Shown: positions 248 to 18,213 of the stretch, in pieces
How positions within the stretch are numbered: position 1 is the stretch's first letter
Layout of the letters: the number at the start of each line of letters is the position of its first letter
Origin: a virus
Virus record (IMG/VR): IMGVR_UViG_3300010412_000104
Location: 1-20,076 of that record
DNA length: 20,076 nucleotides
Reading direction: 5' to 3' (one strand)
Program-made: the position numbers and the translations under genes
Notes under the pieces: model-generated
What the model saw: only the letters and a program-made list of their open reading frames with translations
Told to the model about the DNA's origin: nothing
Databases searched by the model: none

Positions 248-836
248 ACAAGTTCAAAAAATAATTGGCCAGGCCGGAGACTTAACAATTGAGAAAATCG
301 ACTGTGCTTATCACGATCTTATAAGTGTTGATTGGTTGGCGACTCGGTTCGATCCGGAAAATTGCAATCGGCATTCATTGGAGCAAATCGAACTCGCGGC
401 GAATACCATAAAGGCAAACGGGTTTCGCGAGGCGGTTATTGTTGATAAGTCGAACGAATGTCTTGTTTCGGGAGAGTGTCGAACGCTTGCGGCCTTAAAG
501 CTTGGTTGGAAATGTCTTCCAGTTCAATGGCAATCTTTTAAAGGAAATCAAAGGTTCTCTTATAGTGTTGCGGCCAATGAGCTTGGGAAACACGCTTCGC
601 TTGACGGGTTCAAGTTTATTGAGAAGTTTAAGGGGTTGGGAGACGAGACACTTCTTCCGACGTTTTGCCTTCGAAAGAATCCTTTTGATATTAAGAAGGA
701 CGAACCACAAGAACAACTTCCGACAACTAAAATCAAATTAACGATCTCGCTTGACTACGGCGAAGACGAAGAGGCGGAAAAGTTATTTAAAGAATTAACG
801 GCGAGGGGTTATTCATGCAAGGTCAAGATTCCTTAA
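240..836 (+). CDS. ParB-like nuclease-fold protein (phage ParB/sulfiredoxin superfamily)
   Basis: The protein has 198 residues. Residues about 15-95 follow the ParB N-terminal domain layout: an opening 'I..I' strand, a helix ending in KANGFREAVIVD (about 58-69), and the diagnostic box SGECRTLAALKLG (77-89), equivalent to the GxxR..AA..lG phosphate-binding motif (G78, R81). It continues into a helical segment (SVAANELGKHASLD). A short C-terminal alpha/beta unit (about 167-198) ends in ELTARGYSCKVKIP, a tail I associate with phage ParB-type proteins. Phage members of this family are often found beside DNA methyltransferases and may act as nucleases or nucleotide-dependent DNA clamps. Which applies here is unknown. 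I prefer ATG 240 over the in-frame ATG 225, because GAGG at 228-231 is well placed for 240 and the extra five residues add nothing. No ParA partner is visible, so plasmid-style partitioning is unlikely. Confidence 0.82.
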   Translation: MSEQVQKIIGQAGDLTIEKIDCAYHDLISVDWLATRFDPENCNRHSLEQIELAANTIKANGFREAVIVDKSNECLVSGECRTLAALKLGWKCLPVQWQSFKGNQRFSYSVAANELGKHASLDGFKFIEKFKGLGDETLLPTFCLRKNPFDIKKDEPQEQLPTTKIKLTISLDYGEDEEAEKLFKELTARGYSCKVKIP

Positions 837-1027
837 GCGAAAAGATCGCCGGCCAGGCCATTGAGGATCAAAAGACCTTGTGGTTTTATAGTTTGCTTGA
901 TTTGTTTACTTTTATCCAATGCGAGAAAACTCAAGGTTATTTTGTTAAATATATTTTAAGAACTTCAAATCCTGAATTGGAACAAGGAATCGTTGTTCTC
1001 GAAAAGGTGAAAAATATTTATGTATAA
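815..1027 (+). CDS. Hypothetical 70-residue protein
   Basis: The product is not recognised. Its start overlaps the end of the ParB-like gene by 22 bases and has GAGGGG upstream at a normal distance, which argues for a real, coupled gene. The sequence has a polar N-terminus followed by an aromatic, hydrophobic stretch (WFYSLLDLFTFI, about residues 23-34) that looks like an amphipathic helix more than a membrane span. A charged C-terminal segment follows. Its last 8 bases overlap the next gene. It contains one of the eight GGCCWGGCC words (851-859), reading Gly-Gln-Ala. I make no functional claim. Confidence 0.65.
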   Translation: MQGQDSLSEKIAGQAIEDQKTLWFYSLLDLFTFIQCEKTQGYFVKYILRTSNPELEQGIVVLEKVKNIYV

Positions 1028-1340
1028 GAAAGAAGAAATGAAAGAAAGACTCGAAGAAAGGTTAAAGCTTTTAAGAGAGGCCGATCTTAAAAAGAGAATG
1101 AAAACTTTATTCAATAAGTTTTTAAAAGAGAGAGCGGAGAATAATTTTTTAAGGGCGAGGGTTCAATTTCTTGAAAATCAAATGCAACAACTCGCTTCAA
1201 ATTTTATGGCCTATAAGAAAGAAAAAGAGGCCGCTCCGGTTTACGAATCTTGGTTCGTCAACGACGTTTCGGTCACAAAAGAAGAGTTTTTAAAAGCAAA
1301 AGTAATGCAATCAAAAGAGACGGAGAGTTTGAATGAATAA
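1020..1340 (+). CDS. Hypothetical lysine/glutamate-rich coiled-coil protein
   Basis: The protein has 106 residues. The first 70 are almost entirely helix-forming and highly charged (repeated Lys, Glu, Arg and Leu), typical of a coiled coil. The last third (from about residue 72) is less regular, with a short aromatic piece, VYESWFVNDVSVTKEEF. Part of that piece resembles small phage proteins with a VxxxEF..A core, but this is too weak to name a family. The start ATG follows AAGG and overlaps the previous gene by 8 bases. The stop overlaps the next gene by 8 bases. It is probably a structural or regulatory accessory of the early operon, with function unknown. Confidence 0.7.
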   Translation: MYKKEEMKERLEERLKLLREADLKKRMKTLFNKFLKERAENNFLRARVQFLENQMQQLASNFMAYKKEKEAAPVYESWFVNDVSVTKEEFLKAKVMQSKETESLNE

Positions 1341-1524
1341 GAAGAAGTGTAGTTCTTGCAAAGAAACAAAATTTTTAAAACATTTTTCAAAAATATCGGG
1401 AAGAAAAGACGCTTATCGCTCGCAATGCCGAGCTTGTCGTTGCGTCTCAACTAAAAATTATAGATGGAAAAAATACGCGGAAAGGGACGGAGAAGAGTTT
1501 AAGCCGATCCCTTATAGGGGTTAA
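1333..1524 (+). CDS. Small four-cysteine zinc-finger phage protein
   Basis: This 63-residue basic protein has two CxxC pairs, CSSC at 6-9 and CRAC at 33-36, separated by about 23 residues, with one more Cys at 38. The arrangement KxCxxC-K-x-FL-x-HF ... QCRAC follows the pattern of small zinc-binding proteins common in phages and also found at the N-terminus of some HNH and endonuclease VII-type proteins. The HNH catalytic part is absent here, so nuclease activity is not implied. A nucleic-acid-binding or adaptor role is the usual guess for such stand-alone fingers. GGAGAG upstream supports the start, which overlaps the preceding gene. The following gene begins 1 base after its stop. Confidence 0.8.
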   Translation: MNKKKCSSCKETKFLKHFSKISGRKDAYRSQCRACRCVSTKNYRWKKYAERDGEEFKPIPYRG

Positions 1525-1525
1525 T

Positions 1526-1861
1526 ATGGCCGAAAGATTAAAGCACGGCGACAAAGTAGTCATTGAAGTTGAACTTGCGAATAAGTTGTCTTATCAAACT
1601 GACAATCTTTGGATCGTGTTGGACGGGAAAAGAGTCGGTTATTTGCCAAGGACTTTTTTGGAGTCTTCGCCGAACGTCGTTCGTTCCGGATTTGGAATCG
1701 TTACTTTTCACGACGAAAAAACGGGAAGTATTCTCGATTCAAGTATTTTAAGAAGAAAAAAATTCTCTTCAAAAGAGGATTTCGAAAATTGGACAAATGA
1801 AAATGAATTAACTCATTTTCGATTTATAAGCATAACTCAATCAAAGGAGATTAAAAAATGA
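1526..1861 (+). CDS. Hypothetical 111-residue protein, possibly HIRAN-like
   Basis: The product is not firmly recognised. The N-terminal half alternates strand-like segments (KVVIEVELA; DNLWIVLDGKRVGYLPR at about 26-42). The GKRVGYLPR stretch resembles the 'lGYlPr' turn of HIRAN domains, which bind DNA ends, but the rest of that domain is not convincing, so this is only a suggestion. The C-terminus (about 75-111) is charged and probably helical. AGGGG lies upstream of the ATG at a normal distance. The stop codon overlaps the next start in an ATGA arrangement, which indicates coupled translation. Confidence 0.7.
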   Translation: MAERLKHGDKVVIEVELANKLSYQTDNLWIVLDGKRVGYLPRTFLESSPNVVRSGFGIVTFHDEKTGSILDSSILRRKKFSSKEDFENWTNENELTHFRFISITQSKEIKK

Positions 1862-2151
1862 GTCACGGAATGCGAATTAATGGTGAAAGAAAAGATCGAA
1901 TGATCGCGAAAATTGTCGGTTTAATGTTGGCGAATCCCGATTTTTTGCCGGAAGAAAAAAAAGCTCGAGATCGTTACTTTCGAAACCTTGAAGCTCAACT
2001 TCAAACGACGCCGACAAAATACTTGAGCGGGGTTTATTCGAGCTTAATCGTTTCGGCGAAGAAGTTTAAGGCGGAAAACAAAGGGACGCTTATAAGTTCA
2101 AAAGATGTCTCAAAAGTTAAGAAATTTTTTAAGAAAATTTTAGGGGTTTAA
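1858..2151 (+). CDS. Hypothetical 97-residue basic helical protein
   Basis: I do not recognise this protein. It is strongly basic, with many Lys and Arg residues and little beta propensity. A first helix (about 8-25) is hydrophobic on one face (MIAKIVGLMLANPDF). A linker follows, then a second helical region ending in a Lys-rich stretch (KVKKFFKKIL). The charge would suit nucleic-acid binding, but no motif proves it. It is coupled to the preceding gene by the ATGA overlap, with GGAG in the upstream coding sequence, and the next gene starts 1 base after its stop. It belongs to the same run of small early genes. Confidence 0.72.
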   Translation: MSHGMRINGERKDRMIAKIVGLMLANPDFLPEEKKARDRYFRNLEAQLQTTPTKYLSGVYSSLIVSAKKFKAENKGTLISSKDVSKVKKFFKKILGV

Positions 2152-2152
2152 C

Positions 2153-2611
2153 ATGAGTTCTCACAACTTCGGCCCAATTGTACCGGTTGGGATTAAAATT
2201 TTAAAAGCTCCCTTTATTGTTAATGGAAGTCACTTTCAAGCGTTCGACGATTATGTCGGAATGGTTTTGTCGGGTTTTATTCATAGAGAAGCTTGGTCTT
2301 TGTCAAGAAAACTTTATTTAAACGACATAGCTTATGGTGGAAGTTTTTTTATTGACCAATGGAACGAAGGAGAAGTTTCAAGAATAAATGAATTTTTTCA
2401 AATTGAATGCGAACTCGCCCCTTCATTTGTTCTCGATCATAAAAGAATCGAACACGACGAAGAGACTAAAAAATTGCATATTGAAATCGAGAGACTTGTA
2501 AAAACGACCGAATTATTGTCTTCGGAAAATGAACAATTATTTAAAGAAAGAGAGCAAATCGACCTTCAAAAATACTTAGGAAATCCGAAAGAGGTTCTTT
2601 TAAAATGGTAA
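2153..2611 (+). CDS. Hypothetical protein with C-terminal coiled coil
   Basis: The protein has 152 residues in two parts. Residues 1-100 look globular and mixed alpha/beta, rich in aromatics and glycine, with a strand-like opening (FGPIVPVGIKILKAPFIV). Residues about 105-140 form a charged heptad-like helix (KKLHIEIERLVKTTELLSSEN), a likely coiled coil that could mediate dimerisation. No family is recognised. AGGGG upstream of the ATG supports the start. The last 7 bases overlap the start of the methyltransferase gene, so the two are probably translated together, but a functional link to methylation is only an inference from position. Confidence 0.75.
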   Translation: MSSHNFGPIVPVGIKILKAPFIVNGSHFQAFDDYVGMVLSGFIHREAWSLSRKLYLNDIAYGGSFFIDQWNEGEVSRINEFFQIECELAPSFVLDHKRIEHDEETKKLHIEIERLVKTTELLSSENEQLFKEREQIDLQKYLGNPKEVLLKW

Positions 2612-3477
2612 CAAGAAAAGACAAAATAAAAGTAATCTCGACATTTACAGGAATAGGCGGGTTCGAGTTGGCAATGGCCAACATTAATCAAGAACTCGAA
2701 ATGCAATTATTTAATCTCGTCGCTTATTCCGAAATCGATAAGAAGGCCGCAAAGGTTTTTGAGAAGAGATTTCTTTTATTGCAAGCGGAAAATCTTGGAG
2801 ACATTGAAACCGCTTCTTTTGGCCATGTTGGAAATGTTGACTTATTGGTTGGCGGTTCGCCTTGCCAAGACTTATCGATCGCAAAAGGAAAAGGACGTCA
2901 AGGCCTGGCCGGAGAGAAGTCTCGTTTGTTTTATGCTTGGTTAAGAATACTTGAAGAAAAAAGACCTCGATTTTTCATTCTCGAAAACGTTGCTTCAATG
3001 TCTTCTTCGAGTCGCGATAAGATAACCGAAGAGATCGCTCGAGTAACGGAAGGCGAGGTTTATTTAACCTTAATCAACTCTTCTCTTGTGACCGCTCAAA
3101 ATCGAAATCGATATTATTGGACGAACTTTCCAGTCTCTCAACCGGAAGACTTGGGAATCAAGATTGAAGGTTTAACCGCTTGGTCGAGATCGACACGTTA
3201 TCCGGAAGGAAAAGAACCCTATTGGGAAGACCGGACAAGATCGGACGGAAAGGCGAACACTTTAACGACGGGGGCGGGTTGCGGTTCATTCTCTTCGAAG
3301 AATTTCTTAAACGGCGATCAATTGACTCCGGAAATTTGCGAAGAACTTCAAGGTTTCCCAAGAGGTTGGACAAATGTCGAAGGAAATTCTTTGTCTCAAC
3401 GTTATAAACAAATAGGGAACGCGGTCACAGTTCCGGTCATTGAGCATATTTTGAGAGAGCTTATAAAGAATTTTTGA
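2605..3477 (+). CDS. Orphan DNA (cytosine-5-)-methyltransferase
   Basis: This enzyme transfers a methyl group from S-adenosylmethionine to carbon 5 of cytosine in a specific DNA sequence. The conserved C5-methyltransferase motifs appear in order: motif I FTGIGGFE (14-21, cofactor binding), motif IV GGSPCQDLS with catalytic Cys87, motif VI ENV (127-129), motif VIII QNRNR (165-169), an ANTLTTG block, and motif X around GNAV (271-274). At 290 residues it is short, with a small target-recognition region (about 175-225), a size common among phage-encoded enzymes. The motif VIII segment NSSLVTAQNRNRYYWTN is also of the phage type. No restriction endonuclease gene is adjacent, so it probably protects phage DNA from host restriction or serves an epigenetic role. 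Specificity cannot be read from sequence. It overlaps the preceding gene by 7 bases. Confidence 0.95.
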   Translation: MVTRKDKIKVISTFTGIGGFELAMANINQELEMQLFNLVAYSEIDKKAAKVFEKRFLLLQAENLGDIETASFGHVGNVDLLVGGSPCQDLSIAKGKGRQGLAGEKSRLFYAWLRILEEKRPRFFILENVASMSSSSRDKITEEIARVTEGEVYLTLINSSLVTAQNRNRYYWTNFPVSQPEDLGIKIEGLTAWSRSTRYPEGKEPYWEDRTRSDGKANTLTTGAGCGSFSSKNFLNGDQLTPEICEELQGFPRGWTNVEGNSLSQRYKQIGNAVTVPVIEHILRELIKNF

Positions 3478-3502
3478 TTTTCGCTTATGTTTTTCTTATG
3501 AT
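3474..3502 (+). promoter_or_regulatory. Possible sigma-70-type promoter before the packaging genes
   Basis: TTGATT (3474-3479) and TATGAT (3497-3502) are separated by 17 bases, a good match to the -35 and -10 consensus with optimal spacing. They lie in the only sizeable gap between the left operon and the terminase genes. A transcript would begin near 3509 and carry the hairpin at 3508-3532 at its 5' end. AT-rich DNA yields such matches by chance, so this remains a candidate. Confidence 0.35.
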
Positions 3503-3507
3503 TAAAT

Positions 3508-3532
3508 AAGGGGCCGGAGAACTTCGGCCTTT
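3508..3532 (+). terminator. GC-rich hairpin, possible terminator or leader structure
   Basis: GGCCGGA (3512-3518) pairs with TTCGGCC (3523-3529) across the tetraloop GAAC. Weaker G-U and A-U pairs extend the stem outward. Only three Ts follow before TATAAATTT, so it is a weak intrinsic terminator at best. It may end the left operon, or may be a 5' leader hairpin if the overlapping promoter candidate is real. Confidence 0.45.
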
Positions 3533-3559
3533 ATAAATTTAACTCATTGGAGAAGTCAA

Positions 3560-4033
3560 ATGAGCGATAAAAAAAAGAAGAAAAAAGAGAAGTCCAATTC
3601 TTCAAAACAACGCAACCGGTCGGACATTGCCAAGGTGAAAACTCAAGCAAGAGAACCAAACGGCTTTTTTAAAACGTCTTATGATCCTATTTATTGCCAA
3701 AAAATAATTGAGTTCGCTCAACAAGACGGGCGAAGCTTCACTTCATTTTGTACGGAAATCGGGATCGCAAGATCAACGGGTTTTCTTTGGATTGAAACTT
3801 ATCCCGAATTTGCTCAAGCAAAAAAAGAGTTCGATCAAATCGCCTATTCAAAACTTGAAAAGCTCGCATTCGCTCAAGCGACGGGTTATAACAAGGGAAA
3901 TTCAAGAGTCTTATTATTCATTCTTAATGGAAAAAGATTCAAAGAATTGGATTGCTTACAACAAGTTCAACAAACGAAAGAGGCCGAGTCGGACGATCTT
4001 TCAAATTTAACGTTGGCCTATTCGCTTGACTGA
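3560..4033 (+). CDS. Terminase small subunit
   Basis: The small terminase subunit recognises phage DNA and hands it to the large subunit at the start of packaging. This 157-residue protein has a very lysine-rich N-terminus (about 1-30). A helix-turn-helix region follows (about 40-85), with the family's typical text: YCQKIIEFAQQDGRSF, then FCTEIGIARSTGFLWIETYPEF, corresponding to 'ekI...g.sl..v..elGisrsT.y.W...hPEF'. Helical segments after it (EFDQIAYSKLEKLAF) match the oligomerisation part. GGAG lies 7 bases before the ATG. It is followed, through one small gene, by the large subunit, the normal order in tailed phages. Its end overlaps the next start. Confidence 0.9.
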   Translation: MSDKKKKKKEKSNSSKQRNRSDIAKVKTQAREPNGFFKTSYDPIYCQKIIEFAQQDGRSFTSFCTEIGIARSTGFLWIETYPEFAQAKKEFDQIAYSKLEKLAFAQATGYNKGNSRVLLFILNGKRFKELDCLQQVQQTKEAESDDLSNLTLAYSLD

Positions 4034-4244: not shown

Positions 4245-5583
4245 AAAGACCGCTTCTTCAACTCCGCTTCTTCAAAACTTCAATCCGAAACTCATTCCGT
4301 TTCAATTTAAAGTCGTTCGTTTGGTTCGAAAAGAATTTGATTATTCCAACGGATCGCTTGAAATCCTACTCTCCGGATCGGTTGGTTCGGCGAAGTCGTT
4401 GCTTGTCGCTCATTTGGCCATAACACACGCAATGAATAACGCGGGAGCGGGAGTTTTAATCGGGAGAAGAACTTTAAAGGATTTGAAAAATACAATTTGG
4501 AGCGTCCTTTTAAAACATTTTCCTGGCCTTAAAAAATATTGGAATAAGCAAGAAATGAAAATTTCCCTTCCGAACGGATCGGTCATTTATGGGGTTTCTT
4601 GGGACGACGGAAACTATGACAAATTTCGTTCTTATGAACTTTCATTTATTGCCATTGAAGAGTTAACGGAAAACTCGGACAAAGAAATTTACGACGAATT
4701 AAGAATGCGTCTCGGCCGTCTTCCGCATATTGAAGAGAACGTTTTCATTTGTGCAACGAACCCCGACTCTCCCGCTCATTGGGCCTATAAATATTTCATT
4801 GAAAATCAATCGGAAGAAAGAAGAGTTTTTTACTCCAAGACTTCGGACAATCCGTTTCTTCCGCCGACTTATATTCGACAACTCCGATCAACTCTTGACG
4901 AGAAACAAGCGAAGAGAATGCTCGAGGGAGTTTGGATCGAAATAAATCAAGAAATCGTTTACTATAATTATTCGGCCGAAAGGAACTTTAAAAAGGGCGT
5001 CGTTTACGAGTTTGATCCGAACCTTCCCGTTGATATAATGCACGACTTTAACATTGGATTTGGAAAACCCATGTCGTCCGCAATTGGCCAATTCAAAAAC
5101 GGCGTCTTTCATGTTGCCAAAACCTTCCTTGTTCAAGGGGCGAGAACGCTCGACATTTGCGAAGAAATGGACTTGTTTGGTCAATTCACGCCGAACCGAG
5201 AGATTCGGATTTTCGGCGACGCGACGGGATCGCATAACGACACAAGAAACAATCAAAACGACTACGACATTATTTTAAAATTTCTTGGCCGGAAAAATTG
5301 CAAGGCAAGAATGAACGTCAATCCTTCGAACCCAAGAATCCGAGATCGTAACAACTTGGCGAACGCCTTTTTCTTTAATGATCTTGGAGAAGTTAAGGTT
5401 CTTTTATACGAAGAAGCTAAGGACGCGGACGAGGGGTTTCGATTGACCAAATATAAAAAAGGAGCGAATCTTATTGAAGACGATAGTTTTGAAAAGCAAC
5501 ACGTCACGACGGCAATAACTTATTGGATATATCAAGTAACGCATTTCACAAATAAACCAAAAGGAAGGATTCAAATTTTATGA
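4234..5583 (+). CDS. Terminase large subunit (ATPase-nuclease)
   Basis: This 449-residue protein is the packaging motor and DNA-cutting enzyme. The N-terminal ATPase has a Walker A-type loop GSVGSAKS (48-55), where the usual glycine before lysine is alanine, a deviation seen in terminases. Walker B with the catalytic acidic pair is FIAIEE (138-143), and the coupling motif is CATNP (173-177). The C-terminal RNase H-like nuclease begins with the strand DIMHDFNIG (acidic D), followed by IRIFGDATG (second D). A final H-x-TTAITYW region stands where the family often has a third acidic site. The GTG start is supported by AAGGCGAG immediately upstream. The gene overlaps the preceding unknown gene and ends inside the portal start, so packaging and portal proteins are co-translated. 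Confidence 0.94.
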   Translation: MDFKKTASSTPLLQNFNPKLIPFQFKVVRLVRKEFDYSNGSLEILLSGSVGSAKSLLVAHLAITHAMNNAGAGVLIGRRTLKDLKNTIWSVLLKHFPGLKKYWNKQEMKISLPNGSVIYGVSWDDGNYDKFRSYELSFIAIEELTENSDKEIYDELRMRLGRLPHIEENVFICATNPDSPAHWAYKYFIENQSEERRVFYSKTSDNPFLPPTYIRQLRSTLDEKQAKRMLEGVWIEINQEIVYYNYSAERNFKKGVVYEFDPNLPVDIMHDFNIGFGKPMSSAIGQFKNGVFHVAKTFLVQGARTLDICEEMDLFGQFTPNREIRIFGDATGSHNDTRNNQNDYDIILKFLGRKNCKARMNVNPSNPRIRDRNNLANAFFFNDLGEVKVLLYEEAKDADEGFRLTKYKKGANLIEDDSFEKQHVTTAITYWIYQVTHFTNKPKGRIQIL

Positions 5584-7046
5584 TCGACATTTTAAACTTA
5601 ACCGAATGCGAAAGAATAATAACCGAGATCGAAAGTTCTTCGAATGTAAAAAGAAAACAAAACGAGTTCGCTTCTTTCGAATGCTATTCGGGAAACATTG
5701 GAAGCTATGTCCAAGAGTCGATTAAAAAAATGTTTCCGTTGACATGGCAAAACTACACTATCGCCGAATATTCGGTTTTAAAAAAGATCGTTGATAAGAA
5801 GGCCAAGGCGTATAAAACGCCGCCAATGAGAAAACTTTCAAACGATAACGAATCAAAAAACTATCAAGAAATTTTAAAGAAGTTTAGATTTAACGACGCA
5901 ATGAGAGAGATTGACAAGTCTTTCAATCAACACAAATATTGTGGCCTTTTAATGTTTAAAGAACTTAATGAGCTTGGCGAATATCGACTTAAATTTATGC
6001 CGCTTCGTCCTTATGAGTTCGACGTTGTTCGTTGTGACGAAGACGGATCGGTTGAGTGTTTAATTCTTTCTTATCCAAGCTCTCAAATCACGGGAGCAAA
6101 ACAAAATTTAACGATCTCCGGAGAGTATCAATCGGAAGGCGTGACCGAAAAGATTTATACTTTTTGGACGGAAGAGAATCACGTTGTCGTTAAAGTTGAA
6201 ACCGAAGAAACAAAAGACGGAGAGAAGAAAAGTGTTTCATTTCTTGAGATCGACGACAACCCGAACAACTTAAATCCTTGGGGCGTTATTCCGTTCGTAT
6301 TCCTTCCTTATGATTTTTCGGAAGACTATCCGGTCGCCTCGCCTCTTGCGAGTCAAGCGGTTAATTTGAACGCGATCATTTCGGTTTATTTAACTTCTTC
6401 AAATATGCAAGTTGGAACGTTGACGTTATCTTATCCGGAAGACATGACAATTGATTCCGTCGCTCATGGTTTAATGACCGCGATCAAGCTTCCGCAATCT
6501 CTTAACCCGAACGCAAAAGAAACAAAGGCCGATTATATTTCACCTGGCCCGAACTTAACGGGACATAGAGAAGCGATCATTACTTATCTTTCAATGATAC
6601 TCGACGAACAAGGGATCAACTCGAATCAAATTGTAAACGCCAACGCGGAGAATTTTAATTCGGGATTTGATCGTTTACTTGCTTCGGCCGACGTTCAAAA
6701 TATTATTGAAGAAAACCAAGACACTTATTCAAGATTCGAACAAGACGTTTTCAATGTTATTAAGGCAATGCTTCCGAATGAATTTTCAAGCGACGTCTTA
6801 ACAGTTGTCTACGAAAAACCGAAAGTTCTTGTCACGGATAGCGAAAGACTTAACAACATTGAAAAGCTTATAAAGCTTGGTTGCATTGAGGATTGGGAAA
6901 AGTTAACGATCTTGAATCCGAACCTTTCCGAAGACGAGGCCAAGGCGAAACTTGCAAGAATAAATGAAAAGCAAAATTTAATTGTTAACAAGTTGACGGG
7001 CGGAAATAATGGCAATAACCAAAACCAAAACAACGTCAATCCTTGA
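5580..7046 (+). CDS. Portal protein
   Basis: The portal forms the dodecameric ring at one capsid vertex through which DNA enters and leaves. At 488 residues it has the usual size. Supporting signs are its place directly after the large terminase and several family-like blocks. These are an early helix ending in VLKKIVDKKAKAYKTPPMRK (about 68-87), the clip/stem-like region with LMFKELNELGEYRLKFMPLRPYEFDVV, a later PWGVIPFVFLPYD stretch, and a long helical C-terminal half with VNLNAIISVYLTSSN and NAENFNSGFDRLLAS. The C-terminus is Asn/Gln/Gly-rich and probably disordered. The start overlaps the terminase stop (TTATGA), with GGAAGG upstream. The last 38 bases overlap the next gene. Confidence 0.9.
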   Translation: MIDILNLTECERIITEIESSSNVKRKQNEFASFECYSGNIGSYVQESIKKMFPLTWQNYTIAEYSVLKKIVDKKAKAYKTPPMRKLSNDNESKNYQEILKKFRFNDAMREIDKSFNQHKYCGLLMFKELNELGEYRLKFMPLRPYEFDVVRCDEDGSVECLILSYPSSQITGAKQNLTISGEYQSEGVTEKIYTFWTEENHVVVKVETEETKDGEKKSVSFLEIDDNPNNLNPWGVIPFVFLPYDFSEDYPVASPLASQAVNLNAIISVYLTSSNMQVGTLTLSYPEDMTIDSVAHGLMTAIKLPQSLNPNAKETKADYISPGPNLTGHREAIITYLSMILDEQGINSNQIVNANAENFNSGFDRLLASADVQNIIEENQDTYSRFEQDVFNVIKAMLPNEFSSDVLTVVYEKPKVLVTDSERLNNIEKLIKLGCIEDWEKLTILNPNLSEDEAKAKLARINEKQNLIVNKLTGGNNGNNQNQNNVNP

Positions 7047-8116: not shown

Positions 8117-8117
8117 C

Positions 8118-8147: not shown

Positions 8148-8162
8148 AAAAGGAGAAGAGCA

Positions 8163-9813: not shown

Positions 9814-10266
9814 GTGACAATGCCGACAACTTCGCAACAAAGAGAATATAATAAGTTTCGGCCTGGCCAAAATGACCAAACGAAAGTCGCAACGACAATC
9901 GAACAAGATTCTTCAAATCCTATTCCAACTATAGAACAACAAGGGCAACCTTTCTTTGAATCGGGAGAAGAAATAACTTCTCCGGCGAGCGAAGTTTTGG
10001 TTTTGTCTTTTAATTATTCCGGATCACTTCAAAGAAGAATGACAAAATTTGGAGTCTCTTCAAGCGTTGAAGGGGTTGCTTCTTTATATATCGACGGGAA
10101 TAAAGTTTACTCGATAAGAACAAACGCGGCGATCTCGAATCCCGAGTTTTGTTTTGATCCTTATAAGATCATAAGCGGGTTAATTGAGTTGAAGTTTAGG
10201 GCGAGAGAAAATTCACCAATAACGGCGGTTAATGCCTTTATTTGTGGCAACGATTTAACAATATAA
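9814..10266 (+). CDS. Hypothetical beta-rich virion protein
   Basis: The family is not recognised. The protein has 150 residues. The first 50 are polar and low in hydrophobics, rich in Gln, Thr and Pro, like a flexible anchor. Residues about 55-150 alternate strand-like segments (VLVLSFNYSG, ASLYIDGNKVYSIRT, IELKFRAREN, AVNAFICGNDLTI), suggesting a beta sandwich. I infer a virion surface or accessory component from its position between capsid and tail genes. The GTG start (9814) has AGAGAG upstream. The ATG two codons later (9820) is an equally possible start. It carries a GGCCTGGCC word at 9860-9868, reading out of frame across Arg-Pro-Gly-Gln. Confidence 0.65.
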   Translation: MTMPTTSQQREYNKFRPGQNDQTKVATTIEQDSSNPIPTIEQQGQPFFESGEEITSPASEVLVLSFNYSGSLQRRMTKFGVSSSVEGVASLYIDGNKVYSIRTNAAISNPEFCFDPYKIISGLIELKFRARENSPITAVNAFICGNDLTI

Positions 10267-10274: not shown

Positions 10275-10278
10275 TTTT

Positions 10279-10827
10279 ATGGCACACGTAAGAGAATCAT
10301 TTCCAACATTGGAAGACGCAACAACAAAAGAAGGCGTCGCCGCTCATAAGTCGGAGAACGGAGACAATTCGGCCGGAAAAATCGGATTAACGTCTTGGGT
10401 TTTTAAGGATCATTTAGGAAAACTTGTTCACCCGACATTGACTCCGGAAGGAAAAATCGCGGTTGATTTCGAAGGGGCGGGAGTTCCAAAAGACGCTTCT
10501 TCAAACGGAGAGATCGCCGGAGCTTTAACATTAACAACAATTTGCGAAGTCGCTTTAAACACAAATAAAACGCACGGAAAAATTAAAGCGAACGGAGCTT
10601 GTTTTAAAGAAGCGATTTTTTATCTTGTTCACGTTGACGACGTAACGGAAAAAATCATTGGTTCTTTTATTGTTGGGCCTGGCCAATATTCATTCGGCAT
10701 TGATTTGGGAATGAAAGAAGTTGTTTCGGGATCAACCGGAACTCAAAAACTTATTTTAAAAGCTAAGAACTTAAACAAAGAATCGGATTTCTTGGGAGAT
10801 ATTTCGGCCCTTGAATTTGCGGTTTAA
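10279..10827 (+). CDS. Hypothetical virion protein
   Basis: I do not recognise this 182-residue protein. The N-terminal 30 residues are polar and acidic. A Gly-rich mixed region follows (SWVFKDHLGKLVHPTLTPEGKIAVDFEGAGVP), with strand-loop character like repeated structural motifs. The C-terminal half (about 85-182) alternates strands (ALTLTTICEVALN, EAIFYLVHVDDVTEKIIGSFIVGPGQYSFGI, KLILKAKNL), consistent with a beta-sandwich domain. Placement among other small beta-rich genes between capsid and tail suggests a head decoration or accessory role, which is an inference. The start is fixed by AACGGGGG upstream. It contains the GGCCTGGCC word at 10676-10684. Confidence 0.7.
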   Translation: MAHVRESFPTLEDATTKEGVAAHKSENGDNSAGKIGLTSWVFKDHLGKLVHPTLTPEGKIAVDFEGAGVPKDASSNGEIAGALTLTTICEVALNTNKTHGKIKANGACFKEAIFYLVHVDDVTEKIIGSFIVGPGQYSFGIDLGMKEVVSGSTGTQKLILKAKNLNKESDFLGDISALEFAV

Positions 10828-10840
10828 TCGAGTTTAGTTA

Positions 10841-11664: not shown

Positions 11665-11666
11665 AA

Positions 11667-12308
11667 ATGAAAATTATAAAAAACATTTCAAACGAATCTT
11701 TAACAGTTGGCGGGGTTTTAATCCCTTCCGGAAATTCTTATTCTTGCTTAATGAGGGAAGAAGAGGTTTATTTTGCAAATAGCGACGCCTTTATTTTGGC
11801 GTTAACACAAAACAAACTTGAGGTTTACAACGACACTTTAAAGATAAGCGGGGTTTCAAACGCGATTAATTTCTTAAAGGGCGAGCTTGTTGATTCGGCC
11901 GGAGTTCCGGTTCTTGTTCAAATGCCTTTCGCTTCAAAAACAATGAACGGAAAAAAGCTCTTCAAAAGAGTTCACGGAATGCAAGTTAATTGCGTTCAAG
12001 GTGAAAATATTTTTGAATTTGTGATTCCTTATGGCCAGGTGAAAATAAACGGCCTTGAAATGATCGGCGGACAAAACAACGACAAGGTTGATCTTGAAGT
12101 TTACGACACTCCGACGGGACTTGTTTCCGGATTTCCAAACGTTAAATTAAATCAATTTGGTTTTTCGGTTAATGTTTCAAAAGATTTTTACGAGCATAAA
12201 TCGGAATACGACGCGGACTTATTTTTGAATATGAAGCTTGAAGTTCATTATTTCGCCCAACAAGCGGGACTTATTGGAATAAACTTTTTACTTAATGAGT
12301 TAAAATAA
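11667..12308 (+). CDS. Hypothetical virion protein, 213 residues
   Basis: The family is not firmly recognised. I start the gene at ATG 11667, because GGCGAG stands about 8 bases upstream. The reading frame is open back to 11418, but that part overlaps the well-formed preceding gene in another frame. The N-terminal 60 residues resemble a small beta domain (NISNESLTVGGVLIPSGNS). A central region follows (GELVDSAGVPVLVQMPFASKTM), and then a longer beta-rich segment with YGQVKINGLEMIGGQNNDKV and FGFSVNVSKDFYEHKSEYDADL, ending in an amphipathic piece (GLIGINFLLNEL). A head-fibre or adaptor role is an inference from context. Confidence 0.68.
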   Translation: MKIIKNISNESLTVGGVLIPSGNSYSCLMREEEVYFANSDAFILALTQNKLEVYNDTLKISGVSNAINFLKGELVDSAGVPVLVQMPFASKTMNGKKLFKRVHGMQVNCVQGENIFEFVIPYGQVKINGLEMIGGQNNDKVDLEVYDTPTGLVSGFPNVKLNQFGFSVNVSKDFYEHKSEYDADLFLNMKLEVHYFAQQAGLIGINFLLNELK

Positions 12309-12315
12309 AACGGGG
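12309..12315 (+). promoter_or_regulatory. Recurrent AACGGGG ribosome binding site
   Basis: AACGGGG directly follows the TAA stop at 12306-12308 and lies 5 bases before ATG 12321. It matches the sites at 10267 and 19730 and fixes the hydrolase start. Confidence 0.6.
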
Positions 12316-12320
12316 TTTAA

Positions 12321-12791: not shown

Positions 12792-13586
12792 ATGGAAAAA
12801 TTGAAAATAAACATAAAAGGCGAAGACTATAGTTTAAAGCTCGAAGAATATCACGTCGGACAATATGGTTTCTCGTTCTTAACAAGTGATTCGATCTTTA
12901 TTGGATTTTCAAAACCCGTGACGAATCTTTGGATTGAGCTTGGCCAGGCCAAGAATATAAACGCCGGATCAATTGTCGTTAAAAACGACACTTCAAGCGG
13001 TCAATCTATAGTTGAAGAACTCGAGGACAACACTTTTAATTTTAGCAAGTCGGGAAATATTTCTTGGAAGCTGGCCAGCGACAAAGAACAAAGGAAGGTG
13101 ACAAGATTCGGAGTCGAGCTTTTTTGGTATGAAATAACGTTTTCAAATGACACTTCTTCGATCGACATTTGCGGGATCAATAAGGTTTTTTCAAAAGACG
13201 ACGACCTTATTGAAGAATACCCGTCAATAATTAAGTTTCTTCCGGAAGGAAAGGAATCTTTTATCGCATTTCACCAATCGGCGAGAAAAGACATTGTTCA
13301 AGCTTTTCGCAATAAAGGAAGACTTAACTCTCGCTTATTAACTCAATATGACATTTTAGAAAGTGAAGAGGTTCGGGCCGCTTCAAAATATTTAACACTA
13401 TCAAAAATTTTCTCTTGGTTATCGGACGCTCGCGACGACAATTGGGCCAAAAAGGCCGAAGAGTTTTATCAAGACTATTCGAATTTTATAAATCTCGCCG
13501 TTGTTACAATTGACGAAAACAACGACGGAAAAGTTTCAAGCGAAGAAAAGAAGAACGTTCAATTCGTTCAAGTTGTGAGAGCATAA
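12792..13586 (+). CDS. Head-tail connector-like protein with EF-hand loop
   Basis: The protein has 264 residues in two parts. The N-terminal half (about 1-140) is beta-rich (YGFSFLTSDSIFIGF, NLWIELGQA, FNFSKSGNISWKL, FGVELFWYEITF), like domains seen in phage structural proteins. The C-terminal half is helical, with AASKYLTLSKIFSWLSDARDDNWAKKAEEFY, resembling adaptor or connector proteins that join portal and tail. Near the end is a perfect EF-hand calcium loop of twelve residues, D241-x-N-x-D-G-x-V-x-x-x-E252. Position immediately before the tail terminator supports a connector role, although I cannot match a named family. The start abuts the previous stop, with AAGG upstream. Confidence 0.65.
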   Translation: MEKLKINIKGEDYSLKLEEYHVGQYGFSFLTSDSIFIGFSKPVTNLWIELGQAKNINAGSIVVKNDTSSGQSIVEELEDNTFNFSKSGNISWKLASDKEQRKVTRFGVELFWYEITFSNDTSSIDICGINKVFSKDDDLIEEYPSIIKFLPEGKESFIAFHQSARKDIVQAFRNKGRLNSRLLTQYDILESEEVRAASKYLTLSKIFSWLSDARDDNWAKKAEEFYQDYSNFINLAVVTIDENNDGKVSSEEKKNVQFVQVVRA

Positions 13587-14027: not shown

Positions 14028-14032
14028 GATTT

Positions 14033-15211
14033 ATGACCGATTTTTTAGTCAAGAATAAAAGTGTTGTTTTCGTTAAGCAAGAAGTAACCGAAGGCGTTTA
14101 CAATGCCCCTTCAACAACGGACGATGCTCTTGAAGTTTTATCGAGCGGGGCCGAATCTCAAATGAAAAGATCGGTTATCGATCGCTCGGTTTTATCTCCA
14201 ACAATCGAAGAAGTTGAAAAGCGGCCAGGCCTAAAAGAAGTAACCGGAAGCTTGCCGGTTGAATACAAGGCCGGAAAAATTGAAGGTCAAGCTCCAAGAG
14301 AGAGAGTTTTATATAAGTCAACTCTTGGGGGCGAGCGTGTCGGAGCGGGAGCGGTAACGACTTTAACAGGTCACACGGCTTCGAAGCTTAACATTGGAGA
14401 CGCGGACATTTCGAAGTTTAAAGTTGGCGATTCGGTTCTTGTAAAAGAGGCCGGGAAGTATGAAGTTCGACCAGTTTCGGAAGTCGATCAAACTCTTGGT
14501 TCGGCGAGCGTTACCTTTCGCTTCCCTTTGGACGGCGGCGTTCCTTCCGACAACGTTGTCGTTGTTCCTTCAACAACATATTTCCACGACGAAGAATCGC
14601 CTTCGTTCTCGGTTTCATACTATGAAGGCGGAAAAATTAAAAAAGCTTCTCTTGGGGTTAAGTGTTTAACGGCTTCTCTTGAGTCATGGGAAACGGCAAA
14701 AATCCCAAGTTGGAAATTTGCATTCGCTGGCCTTGACCTTGTTGAATCGGTTGAAGCTCCTTCGATAACTCCGGACTTTTCGGGAGACGCAAAGGCCCCA
14801 ACAATGCTCGAAGCTTGCGTTTGGATTAACGGCGTTGAAGTTGATTACAACAAGCTTGGATTAAATTTAAACAACGAAAAAACCGATCTTTTATCGGCTT
14901 GTTCAACTGGAAAAATTGCTTCAAGAAAGACAAAATTTTCGGTTGAAGGTTCAATCAATCCTTATAAGTCGGCGGTTGACGTTAATCGTTTCAACGCATA
15001 CAACAACGATCAAGAAATTTATTTATTCGGTTATGCTTTTTATAGCACGGGCGTTGCCGGAGAGTTCAAGAACGTTGTCGCTTTTTATATCCCACAAGCA
15101 AAAATCACGGAACTAGGAGCGGGAGAAGAAGGCGGAGTTATCACGGACGAGATTAAGTTCAACGCGTTCAAGAAACTTGGGAAAGATACTATTTTCCTTT
15201 CATTTATTTAA
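14033..15211 (+). CDS. Major tail tube protein
   Basis: The protein has 392 residues and is the predicted subunit of the tail tube. It starts with KNKSVVFVKQEVTEGVYNAPSTTDDAL, the usual opening of siphovirus tube proteins ('...kqE.tyG...p..adaiev'). EVEKRPGLKEVTGSLPVEYKAG (about 58-79) follows. A middle insert (about 115-165) resembles an extra beta domain (KLNIGDADISKFKVGDSVLV). The C-terminal half shows regular beta strands (KFSVEGSINPYKSAVDVNRF, FKNVVAFYIPQAKITELGAG). At 392 residues it is longer than simple tube proteins, in line with the insert. A rho-independent terminator lies just downstream, which would favour high relative expression. It contains GGCCAGGCC at 14223-14231. Confidence 0.85.
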   Translation: MTDFLVKNKSVVFVKQEVTEGVYNAPSTTDDALEVLSSGAESQMKRSVIDRSVLSPTIEEVEKRPGLKEVTGSLPVEYKAGKIEGQAPRERVLYKSTLGGERVGAGAVTTLTGHTASKLNIGDADISKFKVGDSVLVKEAGKYEVRPVSEVDQTLGSASVTFRFPLDGGVPSDNVVVVPSTTYFHDEESPSFSVSYYEGGKIKKASLGVKCLTASLESWETAKIPSWKFAFAGLDLVESVEAPSITPDFSGDAKAPTMLEACVWINGVEVDYNKLGLNLNNEKTDLLSACSTGKIASRKTKFSVEGSINPYKSAVDVNRFNAYNNDQEIYLFGYAFYSTGVAGEFKNVVAFYIPQAKITELGAGEEGGVITDEIKFNAFKKLGKDTIFLSFI

Positions 15212-15215
15212 TTAT

Positions 15216-15236
15216 AAGATCAATTAAAAGATCAAT
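15216..15236 (+). repeat. Short direct repeat AAGATCAAT
   Basis: AAGATCAAT occurs at 15216-15224 and again at 15228-15236, separated by TAA and placed just before the terminator stem. It may be chance, or a protein-binding or RNA element linked to termination. Confidence 0.4.
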
Positions 15237-15238
15237 CG

Positions 15239-15267
15239 AAGAGGGGTTTTTTTGCCCCTCTTTTTTT
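15239..15267 (+). terminator. Rho-independent terminator after the tail tube gene
   Basis: AAGAGGGG (15239-15246) pairs with CCCCTCTT (15255-15262) across an eight-base, T-rich loop, followed by a run of seven Ts at 15261-15267. This is the strongest intrinsic terminator in the window. The tail chaperone gene follows after only about 20 bases with its own GGAG, so termination is probably partial. Confidence 0.88.
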
Positions 15268-15287
15268 ATTTTCAAAGGAGAAATAAA

Positions 15288-15671
15288 ATGAAGGTTATTC
15301 GTTCGAGTGATTTAATCGTTGTTCACTATAAAGAAGTGAAGGTTAAAGTTAAGCCGTTGACTTATGTCAAATCAATTGAAATGGCCGCCTATTGTCAACC
15401 TGAAGGCCAAAAATACGACTACGAAAAACAAACTATTTTCATGTTGAAAAATTGTATTGTTGACGTTGAAGGCCTTGAGTATCACGACAAGAAAAAATTT
15501 GTTATTAAAAAAGACGAAGCGGGAGAACTTTCCGAAGAAACTCTCGACGAACTTATTTCAGCATTCGACAACGAAGAGCTTATGACCGCCTTTATTTGGT
15601 CATGTCGTAAAAAAATCGACAAGAAAATTGAAGGAATCAAGTTCTCAATTGAACCAATGGGAAACGACTAA
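15288..15671 (+). CDS. Tail assembly chaperone, short form (gpG-like)
   Basis: This 127-residue protein is the predicted short tail assembly chaperone, which together with the longer frameshift product guides tube assembly around the tape measure. It lies between the tail tube and tape measure genes, as expected. The N-terminal part is beta-like (VKVKVKPLTYVKSIEM). The C-terminal part is helical and acidic (SEETLDELISAFDNEELMTAFIW). I start at ATG 15288, after GGAG. The frame is open 12 codons further to TTG 15252, but that lies inside the terminator. Its final codons hold the slippery heptamer GGGAAAC. Confidence 0.82.
   Translation: MKVIRSSDLIVVHYKEVKVKVKPLTYVKSIEMAAYCQPEGQKYDYEKQTIFMLKNCIVDVEGLEYHDKKKFVIKKDEAGELSEETLDELISAFDNEELMTAFIWSCRKKIDKKIEGIKFSIEPMGND
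15659..15665 (+). promoter_or_regulatory. Predicted -1 ribosomal frameshift site GGGAAAC
   Basis: In the chaperone frame the codons read ATG GGA AAC, so the heptamer G-GGA-AAC fits X-XXY-YYZ exactly, like the lambda G-T site (GGGAAAG). It lies two codons before the stop. The -1 frame is open from here to 16078. A nested weak stem (15691-15695 with 15721-15725, and 15698-15703 with 15709-15714) lies downstream, further away than usual stimulators. Confidence 0.85.
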
Positions 15672-16078
15672 AAACTCTCCTTGATTTAATTGCTCTTGAG
15701 ATTTATTCAATCTCTTTCTTGAGCATTGAAGAGAAGGCGTTCTTCGCGGCGACTTATAAAGTTCTTTGCGATCAAGAATTTCGTTGTTTTTTATGTAAAC
15801 AAAAATATTCCATTGAGCAACGAAACGGATCGAAGGCGTGTGAAAAACCAACGAAAAAAGTCGTTTTTCGCGACGCTCGAGGGATTCAATTCAACAAATG
15901 CGTCGGCAATTTTTACGTCGAATCTTATTCTCATTGGTTCGATATTTTTCGACATTATTCAAAAGGCGTGTCAATATTTAAGGGAGCAATGGAAGAATGG
16001 CCGAATAAAAACGTCGAGGCGATTCAATTCATTGAATTGTTGGAATACGAAAGGCAACGAAGGGAGCTTGAAAAATGA
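15665..16078 (+). CDS. Tail assembly chaperone, T-domain expressed by -1 frameshift (gpGT-like)
   Basis: After slippage at 15659-15665 the ribosome enters the -1 frame at CGA 15665 and adds 137 residues to the first 126 of the short form, giving a fusion of about 263 residues. In this frame the sequence runs RLKTLLDLIALEIYSISFLSIEEK... without a stop. The T-domain begins helical and has a cysteine-containing centre (FRCFLCKQKYS; further Cys in SKACEKP and NKCVG). It ends in a helix (FIELLEYERQRRELEK). Independent translation from TTG 15719 is possible but has no Shine-Dalgarno sequence. The stop overlaps the tape measure ATG (ATGA). Confidence 0.82.
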   Translation, partial: RLKTLLDLIALEIYSISFLSIEEKAFFAATYKVLCDQEFRCFLCKQKYSIEQRNGSKACEKPTKKVVFRDARGIQFNKCVGNFYVESYSHWFDIFRHYSKGVSIFKGAMEEWPNKNVEAIQFIELLEYERQRRELEK

Positions 16079-18213
16079 GCGACACGCAAGTTGAGATTAC
16101 AGTCAACGACGGCCCCGCGATAAGGGCCTTAAAAAATATTCAAAACCAAGTTGACACTTTTTCGAAGTCTTTTAATGACCAAATAAAAGGTTCTTCAACT
16201 ATCTTTCAAAACTTCTCGACTGTTATGCTTGGCCAATTGGCGGCGGACGGAATAAAGGGAGCTTTAAACCTTGCGGCGGACGCGGCGAAGGGATTATTCA
16301 ACACTTTTATAATTGACGGAGTTCAAGCGGCCCAAGCTTATGAAGAAAGTCTTCTCGGGGTTAATGTTGCCCTTGCGGCTTCCGGACAATATACGGCGAA
16401 GGCGTCAAAAGAACTCGAAGTTTTCGCTTCGAAAATTCAAGAGACGACAAAATACTCGGACGATCAAGTTCTTGCGGCGGCAAGAACGATTGAAACTCTT
16501 GGAAAATTAAACGGGGCGGAGTTAATACGAGCAACGAACGCCGCGATCCAACTTGCGGCGGCGAGAAATCTTGACCTTGCAACCGCTTCGGAACTTGTTG
16601 CAAAGGCAAGTGAAGGCGTTACTCAAGGACTAAGAAGGCAAGGGATCGTTATTTCGGACAACATACCGGCCGCAAATAAATTTGAAGCTCTTTTAAAATT
16701 AATCGAAAGAGATTTTGGAGACACGGCCCAAAAGAACGCCTCTTCTTATTCGGCGGAAATTGCAAAATTAACTCACCAATTCGAAGACGTTCAAAAACAA
16801 ATCGGTTTTGTTATCACTAAAAACCCCGCCCTTCGCGGAGCAATCGAAGCGGCGAAAAAAGTTTTTAAGGATTGGACGGGAGAAATCGAAGGATCACAAG
16901 TAGTGTTGAGCGGACTTGTGACAAACGGAGTTTTAAAATTCATTGAAGCTCTTGGGCCAGCGATTACTTTTGTTGATCGACTTGGAAGACTTGGAACTTT
17001 TGTTTTTAACATATTCGCGGCGGGATTTAGCACGATTTTAACTCTTGGCGGAGAGTTGACCGGAACTTTGTTGACTCCAATCGAAAAAGTTGTTTCGGTT
17101 ATTGAGTCCGCAATGGGAGATCGAACCCCTTCGGCAATTAAGAAAACTCGTCTTGCGTTGGACGCCGTAAACGCAACAACGGCGGAGTTCGCGGGAGACG
17201 TTGTTCAAAATTGGGACAATATAAGCAAGGCGTTTAATGAGAAATCATTTCTTGAACAAGCTTCAAACGAAGTTAAAAAGTTCGCTCGCTTAACAAAAGA
17301 AGAAACGGCGAAAATTGTTTCGGAAGTTGGCCAGGCCGAAGTCCCAACAAACAACGCCAATGTCGATAAAAAACTTGAAGCGGTTCGCGAGTCGGAAAGA
17401 AAAGCTCTTGAGATCGGAAATGAAGCGAGAACTTTAAGAGAACAAGCGGCATTGGAAGACGAACAAAGAGAATTAACATTACAACAAGCTCGCGGAGACA
17501 TGAGAACCGCCGATCTTGAAAGTTTATTTGCATTTGAACAAAAGAAAATTGAGATCACTTATCAGGCCGAACTTGATAAGGCGAACAAAATAGTTGAACC
17601 CCTTGAGAGAAAAGCGGCGATTGAAAAAGCGGACGCGAATCGATCTCTTGCATTGGCCAAGGCGACAACGAAATCAAAACTCGACCTTCAAGCTCTCGAC
17701 CTTAAACAACAAAACGATTTCTTGAATACGGCGGCGACACTATCAAACGCAAAAAATAAAGAACTTGCGGCAATAGGAAAAGCGGCGGCGATAACACAAA
17801 TCGCGATTAAGACTCCGCCCGCGATCGCTTCTTCTTTCGAGTTCGGAACTAAGCTCGGCGGCCCGCCTCTTGGATTTGTTTTTGGAGCAATTGCGGCGGC
17901 GGCAATGGCAAGTCAAGCCGCTTCGATAGCCGGAGTCAAGTTCGCGGCGGGGGGCCTAGTTGATTCCAACTCTCAAAACGGAGACTATATTTCCGCAAGA
18001 CTTAACGGCGGAGAAATGGTTTTAACAAAACAAATGCAAGCGAACCTTCTTTCAATGGCAACAACCGGCGGCGGAACGAGCGGAGACTTAATTTCCGCAA
18101 TCAACTCGCTTGGAGATAGAATCGAAAGAATGAATATTGTCGTTCAAGCAAATGGAAGGGAAATCGCGAGATTGATTAAAGACGAGACTCGAGCGGGATT
18201 CTCTTTTTCATAA
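16075..18213 (+). CDS. Tail tape measure protein
   Basis: This 712-residue protein sets tail length and is ejected during infection. Features are an N-terminal helical region (ALKNIQNQVDTFSKSFNDQI) and long Ala/Lys-rich helices (about 75-270). A hydrophobic stretch (about 280-345, GVLKFIEALGPAITFV, TFVFNIFAAGFSTILTL) could insert in membranes. A charged coiled coil follows (about 410-570). An Ala/Gly-rich hydrophobic segment (about 579-625) leads to KFAAGGLV, followed by GDYISARLNGGEMVLTKQM, a typical end of siphovirus tape measures. By the usual rule of about 0.15 nm per residue the tail would be near 105 nm. It is the largest gene in the window and directly follows the frameshifted chaperone, with an ATGA overlap. 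No lytic transglycosylase or peptidase domain is seen. Confidence 0.92.
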   Translation: MSDTQVEITVNDGPAIRALKNIQNQVDTFSKSFNDQIKGSSTIFQNFSTVMLGQLAADGIKGALNLAADAAKGLFNTFIIDGVQAAQAYEESLLGVNVALAASGQYTAKASKELEVFASKIQETTKYSDDQVLAAARTIETLGKLNGAELIRATNAAIQLAAARNLDLATASELVAKASEGVTQGLRRQGIVISDNIPAANKFEALLKLIERDFGDTAQKNASSYSAEIAKLTHQFEDVQKQIGFVITKNPALRGAIEAAKKVFKDWTGEIEGSQVVLSGLVTNGVLKFIEALGPAITFVDRLGRLGTFVFNIFAAGFSTILTLGGELTGTLLTPIEKVVSVIESAMGDRTPSAIKKTRLALDAVNATTAEFAGDVVQNWDNISKAFNEKSFLEQASNEVKKFARLTKEETAKIVSEVGQAEVPTNNANVDKKLEAVRESERKALEIGNEARTLREQAALEDEQRELTLQQARGDMRTADLESLFAFEQKKIEITYQAELDKANKIVEPLERKAAIEKADANRSLALAKATTKSKLDLQALDLKQQNDFLNTAATLSNAKNKELAAIGKAAAITQIAIKTPPAIASSFEFGTKLGGPPLGFVFGAIAAAAMASQAASIAGVKFAAGGLVDSNSQNGDYISARLNGGEMVLTKQMQANLLSMATTGGGTSGDLISAINSLGDRIERMNIVVQANGREIARLIKDETRAGFSFS

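What the first reader, a model, noticed from the sequence alone, without database searches (positions are those of the whole stretch)
267..17337. Eight copies of the 9-mer GGCCWGGCC scattered through genes
GGCC[A/T]GGCC is seen at 267, 851, 2902, 9860, 10676, 12942, 14223 and 17329. From base composition I would expect well under one copy in 20 kb, and even given the abundance of GGCC the expected number is below one. The word is its own reverse complement except at the central base. It sits in different reading frames (Gly-Gln-Ala in some genes, Pro-Gly-Gln in others), so protein sequence does not explain it. Possible roles are a double modification site, a binding site for a phage or host protein, or a Chi-like or packaging word.
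Basis: partly seen in the sequence, partly recalled or inferred. Interest (0 to 1): 0.75.

Follow-up and report, generated by a model that had tools for sequence, protein, structure and literature searches.

The report
Favoured GGCCWGGCC word in word-purged phage
A phage genome that has rid itself of an unusual number of short DNA words keeps and multiplies one nine-letter word, GGCCWGGCC, possibly because two overlapping GGCC sites make an otherwise forbidden CCWGG site safe; the excess is real, but its function is unproven.

Summary
In detail: GGCCWGGCC occurs 8 times at the stated positions. Chance gives 0.017 (order-1), 0.05 (codon shuffle) or 0.08 (random DNA purged of the window's 30 most avoided motifs). 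109 other fetched loci (1.36 Mb) hold 6 copies, 5 of them in one GC-rich contig. The sites lie in two reading frames across eight ORFs, so no single protein motif explains them.

The word belongs to a larger oddity. The phage avoids about 30 short-word classes covering 35% of 7-mers: CAG/CTG 45 of 293 expected (both strands), GCGC 0 of 102, GATG/CATC 5 of 101, GAATTC 0 of 17. Sixteen comparison loci avoid 0-11 classes. All 15 CCAGG/CCAGC words are preceded by GG (expected 11%; 5.7% in other loci). Every GGCC-making flank of a CCWGG that the genetic code permits is used (19 of 19).

Best reading: GGCCWGGCC is a CCWGG-type target shielded by overlapping GGCC modification, plausibly laid by the phage's lone C5-methyltransferase (2605-3477). 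Shielding alone predicts about 0.2 copies, so the excess implies positive selection, perhaps for a protein-binding or modification site. Enzyme specificity and host are untested. Packaging or Chi roles have no support.

The parts
267..275 (.). GGCCAGGCC, Gly-Gln-Ala in the ParB-like ORF 225-836
   Evidence: exact match; coding
851..859 (.). GGCCAGGCC, Gly-Gln-Ala in the small ORF 815-1027
   Evidence: exact match; ORF
2902..2910 (.). GGCCTGGCC, Gly-Leu-Ala inside the methyltransferase gene
   Evidence: exact match; coding
9860..9868 (.). GGCCTGGCC, Arg-Pro-Gly-Gln in ORF 9814-10266
   Evidence: exact match; coding
10676..10684 (.). GGCCTGGCC, Gly-Pro-Gly-Gln in ORF 10279-10827
   Evidence: exact match; coding
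12942..12950 (.). GGCCAGGCC, Gly-Gln-Ala in ORF 12792-13586
   Evidence: exact match; coding
14223..14231 (.). GGCCAGGCC, Arg-Pro-Gly-Leu in ORF 14033-15211
   Evidence: exact match; coding
17329..17337 (.). GGCCAGGCC, Gly-Gln-Ala in the tape-measure ORF 16075-18213
   Evidence: exact match; coding
4522..4528 (.). CCTGGCC: CCWGG with GGCC on one side; the other flank (Phe codon) cannot supply GG
6543..6549 (.). CCTGGCC: CCWGG with GGCC on one side; the other flank (Ser codon) cannot supply GG
12033..12039 (.). GGCCAGG: CCWGG with GGCC on one side; the other flank (Val codon) cannot supply CC
13070..13079 (.). GCTGGCCAGC: two CCAGC words sharing one GGCC
14726..14732 (.). GCTGGCC: CCAGC overlapped by GGCC
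16955..16961 (.). GGCCAGC: CCAGC overlapped by GGCC
2605..3477 (+). C5-cytosine DNA methyltransferase, 290 aa, HaeIII/DNMT3-like motifs; candidate writer of GGCC methylation (specificity inferred, not shown)
   Evidence: Pfam PF00145 E 3.9e-45; PDB matches M.HaeIII and DNMT3A; TIGR00675; phrog_116
225..836 (+). ParB-like protein, a candidate reader of the word in the binding-site rival
   Evidence: phrog_620 E 1.2e-12

Best explanation
GGCCWGGCC is the shielded form of a CCWGG (more broadly CCAGG/CCAGC) site in a phage under very strong selection against many short words. Shown: CAG/CTG is removed almost everywhere; every surviving CCAGG or CCAGC overlaps a GGCC; wherever the genetic code lets the flanks of CCWGG become GGCC they do, giving exactly GGCCWGGCC when both can; and the word is more frequent than mere tolerance predicts. 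Inferred: GGCC carries 5-methylcytosine written by the phage's own solitary C5-methyltransferase. Two overlapping GGCC sites then put a methyl group on the outer cytosine of CCWGG on both strands, which would stop a host endonuclease that reads CCWGG/CCAGS. Also inferred: because the excess goes beyond tolerance, the doubly modified site is itself useful to the phage, for a reason unknown.
For: CCAGG/CCAGC: 15 of 15 preceded by GG against 11.4% expected and 218 of 3796 in other loci. 19 of 22 CCWGG flanks make GGCC against 156 of 2936 elsewhere, and the three exceptions cannot be coded synonymously. GGCC is the strongest rescuing flank among all depleted words in the window, and none of the other loci of 9.5 kb or more shows a comparable rescue. 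All five Pro-Gly dipeptides, which must contain CCNGG, are written CCWGGC and followed by a C-initial codon. A solitary C5-methyltransferase is encoded. GGCC is enriched while much else is purged.
Against: Tolerance of shielded sites predicts only about 0.2 copies (my estimate from the counts), and the purge model gives 0.08. At Gly-Gln-Ala, 12 of 32 encodings made only of common words were available, and they need no CCWGG at all. The methyltransferase specificity is unknown: no match constrains its target-recognition part, and the structure model is poor there. CCAGC is not a CCWGG site, and the methyl group would lie next to CAGC rather than in it. No host nuclease has been identified. Whether methylation of the outer cytosine blocks CCWGG enzymes was not checked.
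Confidence: 0.38

Rival explanations
1. GGCCWGGCC is a positively selected recognition site for a phage or host DNA-binding protein (for example the ParB-like protein at 225-836, or a regulator) or for a modification enzyme, unrelated to shielding. It is kept at spread positions along the genome.
For: The excess is 40-fold or more over tolerance. The word is used although many acceptable synonymous encodings existed. It is palindromic, as expected for a dimeric protein, and is the single most extreme palindromic 9-mer. A ParB-like protein is encoded, with a site in its own gene.
Against: Does not explain why all seven other CCAGS words also carry GGCC, or why one-sided CCWGG sites sit exactly where the second flank cannot be coded. 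No relative carries the sites. Sites lie inside genes with no visible arrangement.
Confidence: 0.3
2. By-product of vocabulary restriction: so many short words are banned that the permitted ones, GGCC included, become frequent, and GGCCWGGCC has no role of its own.
For: 35% of 7-mers are purged. Purging 30 motifs alone doubles GGCC in random DNA (29 to 58). For Pro-Gly peptides every encoding contains avoided words and GGCCWGGCC is among the best. Other permitted palindromes are enriched too (TGGCCA, TTATAA, CTTATAAG).
Against: The purged random-DNA model gives 0.08 copies, maximum 2. Gly-Gln-Ala and Gly-Leu-Ala had 12 and 33 encodings of common words, and the observed one ranks 18th and 45th. 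The word exceeds even an order-4 Markov model that includes its own counts (1.07).
Confidence: 0.2
3. The word reflects the host: a host genome signature (uptake, Chi-like or iterated palindrome) that the phage has adopted.
For: Iterated palindromes such as HIP1 of cyanobacteria are a known kind (own knowledge).
Against: The Bdellovibrio MAG that holds the nearest cellular TerL relative has 14 copies in 3.5 Mb, control 6. In 241 genomes of that phylum the densest has about 134 per Mb, against about 400 per Mb in the window. A Desulfovibrio MAG has 670 in 3.0 Mb against 53 for the control, but its TerL relative is distant (31%) and that contig is 63% GC. The true host is unknown, so this is not excluded.
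Confidence: 0.06

Closest known systems
Restriction-site avoidance in phages (Rusinov et al. 2018, PMC6286503)
   Same: Short words are eliminated on both strands and in all frames; four- and six-base palindromes such as GCGC and GAATTC are absent
   Different: About 30 classes, most of them non-palindromic, against a published picture in which avoidance is almost confined to palindromic orthodox type II sites; one long word is enriched rather than avoided
Phage self-protecting C5-methyltransferases, such as the multispecific enzymes of B. subtilis phages SPR and phi3T (GGCC plus other sites; own knowledge)
   Same: A solitary C5-methyltransferase encoded by a phage
   Different: Short protein with no sign of several target-recognition parts; specificity unknown; here protection would come from overlap of GGCC with another site
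Overlapping-methylation blocking of restriction enzymes (laboratory phenomenon; own knowledge)
   Same: Modification of one site blocks cutting at an overlapping site
   Different: Here it would act as a natural strategy shaping the genome sequence; not demonstrated
Over-represented functional words (Chi, DNA uptake sequences, KOPS, HIP1; own knowledge)
   Same: A short word far above expectation, placed within genes in different frames
   Different: Palindromic with no polarity, confined to one phage record, not over-represented in the bacterial phylum searched

Membership tests
Restriction-site avoidance | Recognition-like words far below expectation | tested here: met
   30 motifs; GCGC 0/102, GAATTC 0/17, CAG 45/293
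Restriction-site avoidance | Confined to palindromic type II sites | tested here: not met
   25% of non-palindromic 6-mers absent on both strands (2% expected)
Restriction-site avoidance | Matching restriction systems in the host | not testable with these tools
   host unknown; nearest cellular TerL relative is in a Bdellovibrio MAG at 47%
GGCC-specific C5-methyltransferase (M.HaeIII type) | C5-methyltransferase catalytic motifs | tested here: met
   PF00145 E 3.9e-45; M.HaeIII best PDB match over residues 10-175
GGCC-specific C5-methyltransferase (M.HaeIII type) | Target-recognition domain specific for GGCC | tested here: inconclusive
   M.HaeIII match does not cover the target-recognition part; DNMT3A matches over the whole length; model pLDDT below 50 at 192-270
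Shielded-site model | Avoided sites survive only when overlapped by GGCC | tested here: met
   15 of 15 CCAGS; 19 of 19 codable CCWGG flanks
Shielded-site model | Frequency explained by tolerance alone | tested here: not met
   0.08 to 0.2 expected, 8 seen
Shielded-site model | GGCC methylated in virion DNA | not testable with these tools
   no methylation data held
Chi-like or packaging word | Polarity, or clustering at the terminase genes | tested here: not met
   palindromic; central A in 5 and T in 3; none between 2911 and 9859, which holds the terminase genes
Host-wide iterated word | Over-represented in the host genome | tested here: inconclusive
   not at the window's density in 241 genomes of the phylum of the Bdellovibrio MAG, but the host is not known

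The most novel reading that the evidence does not exclude
The phage uses overlapping self-methylation as a shield: the CCWGG/CCAGS targets it keeps are embedded in GGCC, whose methylation by its own enzyme blocks a host nuclease, and it has been driven to use the doubly protected word at nearly every codable position. This would be a strategy between site avoidance and site modification.
Probability: 0.28. Interest if true: 0.8.

Novelty: new variant of a known kind. Interest (0 to 1): 0.6.

Why it matters
If right, a phage can combine avoidance and self-modification at single overlapping sites, so the words that survive in a purged genome reveal what its methyltransferase writes. That would give a sequence-only way to predict methyltransferase specificity. 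Separately, a phage that avoids about 30 mostly non-palindromic word classes does not fit the view that avoidance is essentially limited to palindromic type II sites, and it points to an unusually hostile host or a non-classical sequence-specific defence.

Tried and rejected
Chance, base composition, codon usage and a shared protein motif: rejected. Survival by elimination alone: rejected for Gly-Gln-Ala and Gly-Leu-Ala, partly valid for Pro-Gly. Chi-like or packaging word: rejected on symmetry and position. A host-wide iterated word in the phylum of the Bdellovibrio MAG: not found. Very-short-patch repair raising CCWGG: considered and rejected, since such repair makes CAG from TAG whereas CAG is depleted here. 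A Microcystis-type host, suggested by its many restriction systems (PMC8262939): Microcystis phages MaeS and Mic1 also avoid words, but largely different ones, so left open. Searches that led nowhere: phage nucleotide match, capsid and tape-measure relatives, single-sequence TerL search of genomes, portal in the phage collection, structure model of the methyltransferase (too poor for a fold search).

Full report
OBSERVATION. The eight GGCCWGGCC sites are exact. Null expectations are 0.00 (dinucleotide shuffles), 0.017 to 0.115 (Markov order 1 to 3) and 0.05 (codon-preserving shuffles, maximum 1 in 2000, against 7 in the genes used). GGCC is enriched (90 against 31), but pairs of GGCC occur at spacing 5 eight times, always around W and never S, and at every other spacing up to 40 at most twice. 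Among palindromic 9-mers the word is 70-fold over order-3 expectation and the next best is 5.8-fold. The window is a 20,076-base virus record, the only piece held. It carries a ParB-like protein, a C5-methyltransferase, small and large terminase, capsid and tail genes.

THE LARGER ODDITY. The window avoids short words to a degree that no comparison locus reaches. Both-strand counts against order-1 expectation: CAG/CTG 45/293, GCGC 0/102, GATG/CATC 5/101, GCAG 0/57, CAGA 2/109. 75 five-mers and 68 six-mers stand at 0.15 or less of expectation, and 34 of 64 six-base palindromes are absent where 8.2 would be expected. A greedy motif search finds 30 avoided motifs covering 35% of all 7-mers; 16 other loci (TerL relatives, methyltransferase-bearing contigs, Microcystis phages, a cyanophage) give 0 to 11 motifs and at most 8%. 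25% of non-palindromic six-mers are missing on both strands (2% expected; 1-8% in five other loci). The pattern is uniform along the window (each 4-kb piece correlates 0.88-0.92 with the rest), and codon shuffles show that it is not codon usage. Strong restriction-type selection should look like this, but a published survey finds avoidance almost only for palindromic type II sites (PMC6286503).

HOW THE WORD FITS IN. CAG/CTG is nearly banned, yet CCWGG is not rare overall (11 against 11.5 expected). What survives follows a rule: all 11 CCAGG and all 4 CCAGC words (both strands) are preceded by GG, making GGCCAGS. The expectation is 11.4%, and the other fetched loci show 218 of 3796 (5.7%); for CCAGA and CCAGT it is 0 of 5. 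Seen from CCWGG, 19 of 22 flanks make GGCC, against 156 of 2936 in the other loci. The three exceptions are positions where Phe, Ser or Val codons cannot supply the needed bases. All five Pro-Gly dipeptides, which unavoidably create CCNGG, are written CCWGGC and followed by a C-initial codon. A scan of depleted words and flanking dinucleotides finds this GGCC rescue as the strongest effect in the window (p about 1e-10), with no comparable case in the other loci of 9.5 kb or more.

TOLERANCE IS NOT ENOUGH. In a random-DNA model with the window's dinucleotides and the 30 motifs purged at their observed rates, GGCC rises from 29 to 58 (observed 90), but GGCCWGGCC only to 0.08. From the counts I estimate about 0.2 copies if CAG after GGCC were simply free. 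At Gly-Gln-Ala, 12 of 32 encodings consist only of common words, and at Gly-Leu-Ala 33 of 96 do. GGCCWGGCC ranks 18th and 45th, yet it is used in four of five Gly-Gln-Ala (counting ORF 815-1027) and in the only Gly-Leu-Ala. For the Pro-Gly peptides no encoding is free of avoided words, so the word is partly forced there. One caution: the peptides may exist because of the word rather than the reverse, so these are not independent opportunities. Either way the site is favoured, not only allowed.

MECHANISM. The most economical reading is that GGCC is modified. A C5-methyltransferase with HaeIII/DNMT3-type motifs is encoded at 2605-3477. If it writes GG(m5C)C, then GGCCWGGCC is exactly the form of CCWGG whose outer cytosine is methylated on both strands; a one-sided GGCC gives only one strand. 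Steps shown: the avoidance, the GGCC dependence, the use of every codable flank, the excess, and the presence of a methyltransferase. Steps inferred: its specificity, the host nuclease, the blocking effect, and any further benefit that would explain the excess. A DNA-binding site is the main rival and cannot be excluded. A residual by-product of the purge is also possible because the list of avoided words is incomplete.

RELATIVES AND HOST. The nearest relatives by terminase are metagenomic virus contigs at 40-62% identity. The closest (L005, with L038 and L039 from the same record) has a similar set of structural genes and shares a few avoided words (GCGC, CCCGG, GGACC, GACCC) but not the CAG ban or the word. 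Across 1.36 Mb of other loci there are six copies of the word, five in one GC-rich contig. The nearest cellular record is a Bdellovibrio MAG (47%). That genome has 14 copies in 3.5 Mb, and no sampled genome of its phylum approaches the window's density. Several relatives (L054/L056, L100, L050) also ban different sets of short words, so strong vocabulary restriction may be a trait of this phage group.

VERDICT. I rate the finding as a new variant of phage anti-restriction sequence adaptation, interest 0.6.

Noticed in passing
window 1-20076: Extreme avoidance of about 30 short-word classes (35% of 7-mers), mostly non-palindromic, uniform along the window; the most extreme of all loci examined.
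   Followed up: partly
L054, L056, L100, L037, L050: TerL relatives that strongly avoid other sets of short words (GAAC, GATC, CAAC, GTGA, CACA, CTTC), while some over-use CAG; a possible trait of this phage group.
   Followed up: partly
window, all genes: The Gly codon is nearly dictated by the next base: GGC or GGT before A in 5 of 121 cases, GGC before T in 3 of 81, GGC before C in 30 of 51.
   Followed up: no
window, palindromes CTTATAAG, TTATAA, TGGCCA: Other enriched palindromes: CTTATAAG 5 against 0.18, TTATAA 29 against 6.7, TGGCCA 14 against 1.6.
   Followed up: no
window, 9-mers AGGTGAAAA and ACCGGAACT: Each occurs 5 times against about 0.15 expected at order 3; AGGTGAAAA looks like a ribosome-binding-site word and may explain why GGTG survives mainly as GGTGAA.
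   Followed up: no
L035 (Microcystis phage Mic1) and L033 (Microcystis phage MaeS): Mic1 nearly lacks GGCC (1/58) and GATC (3/96) and lacks CGCG and CCAGG; MaeS lacks CCWGG in 40 kb and nearly lacks CNCAG.
   Followed up: no
Genome of L047 (Desulfovibrio MAG): 670 GGCCWGGCC in about 3.0 Mb against 53 for the reversed control pattern.
   Followed up: no
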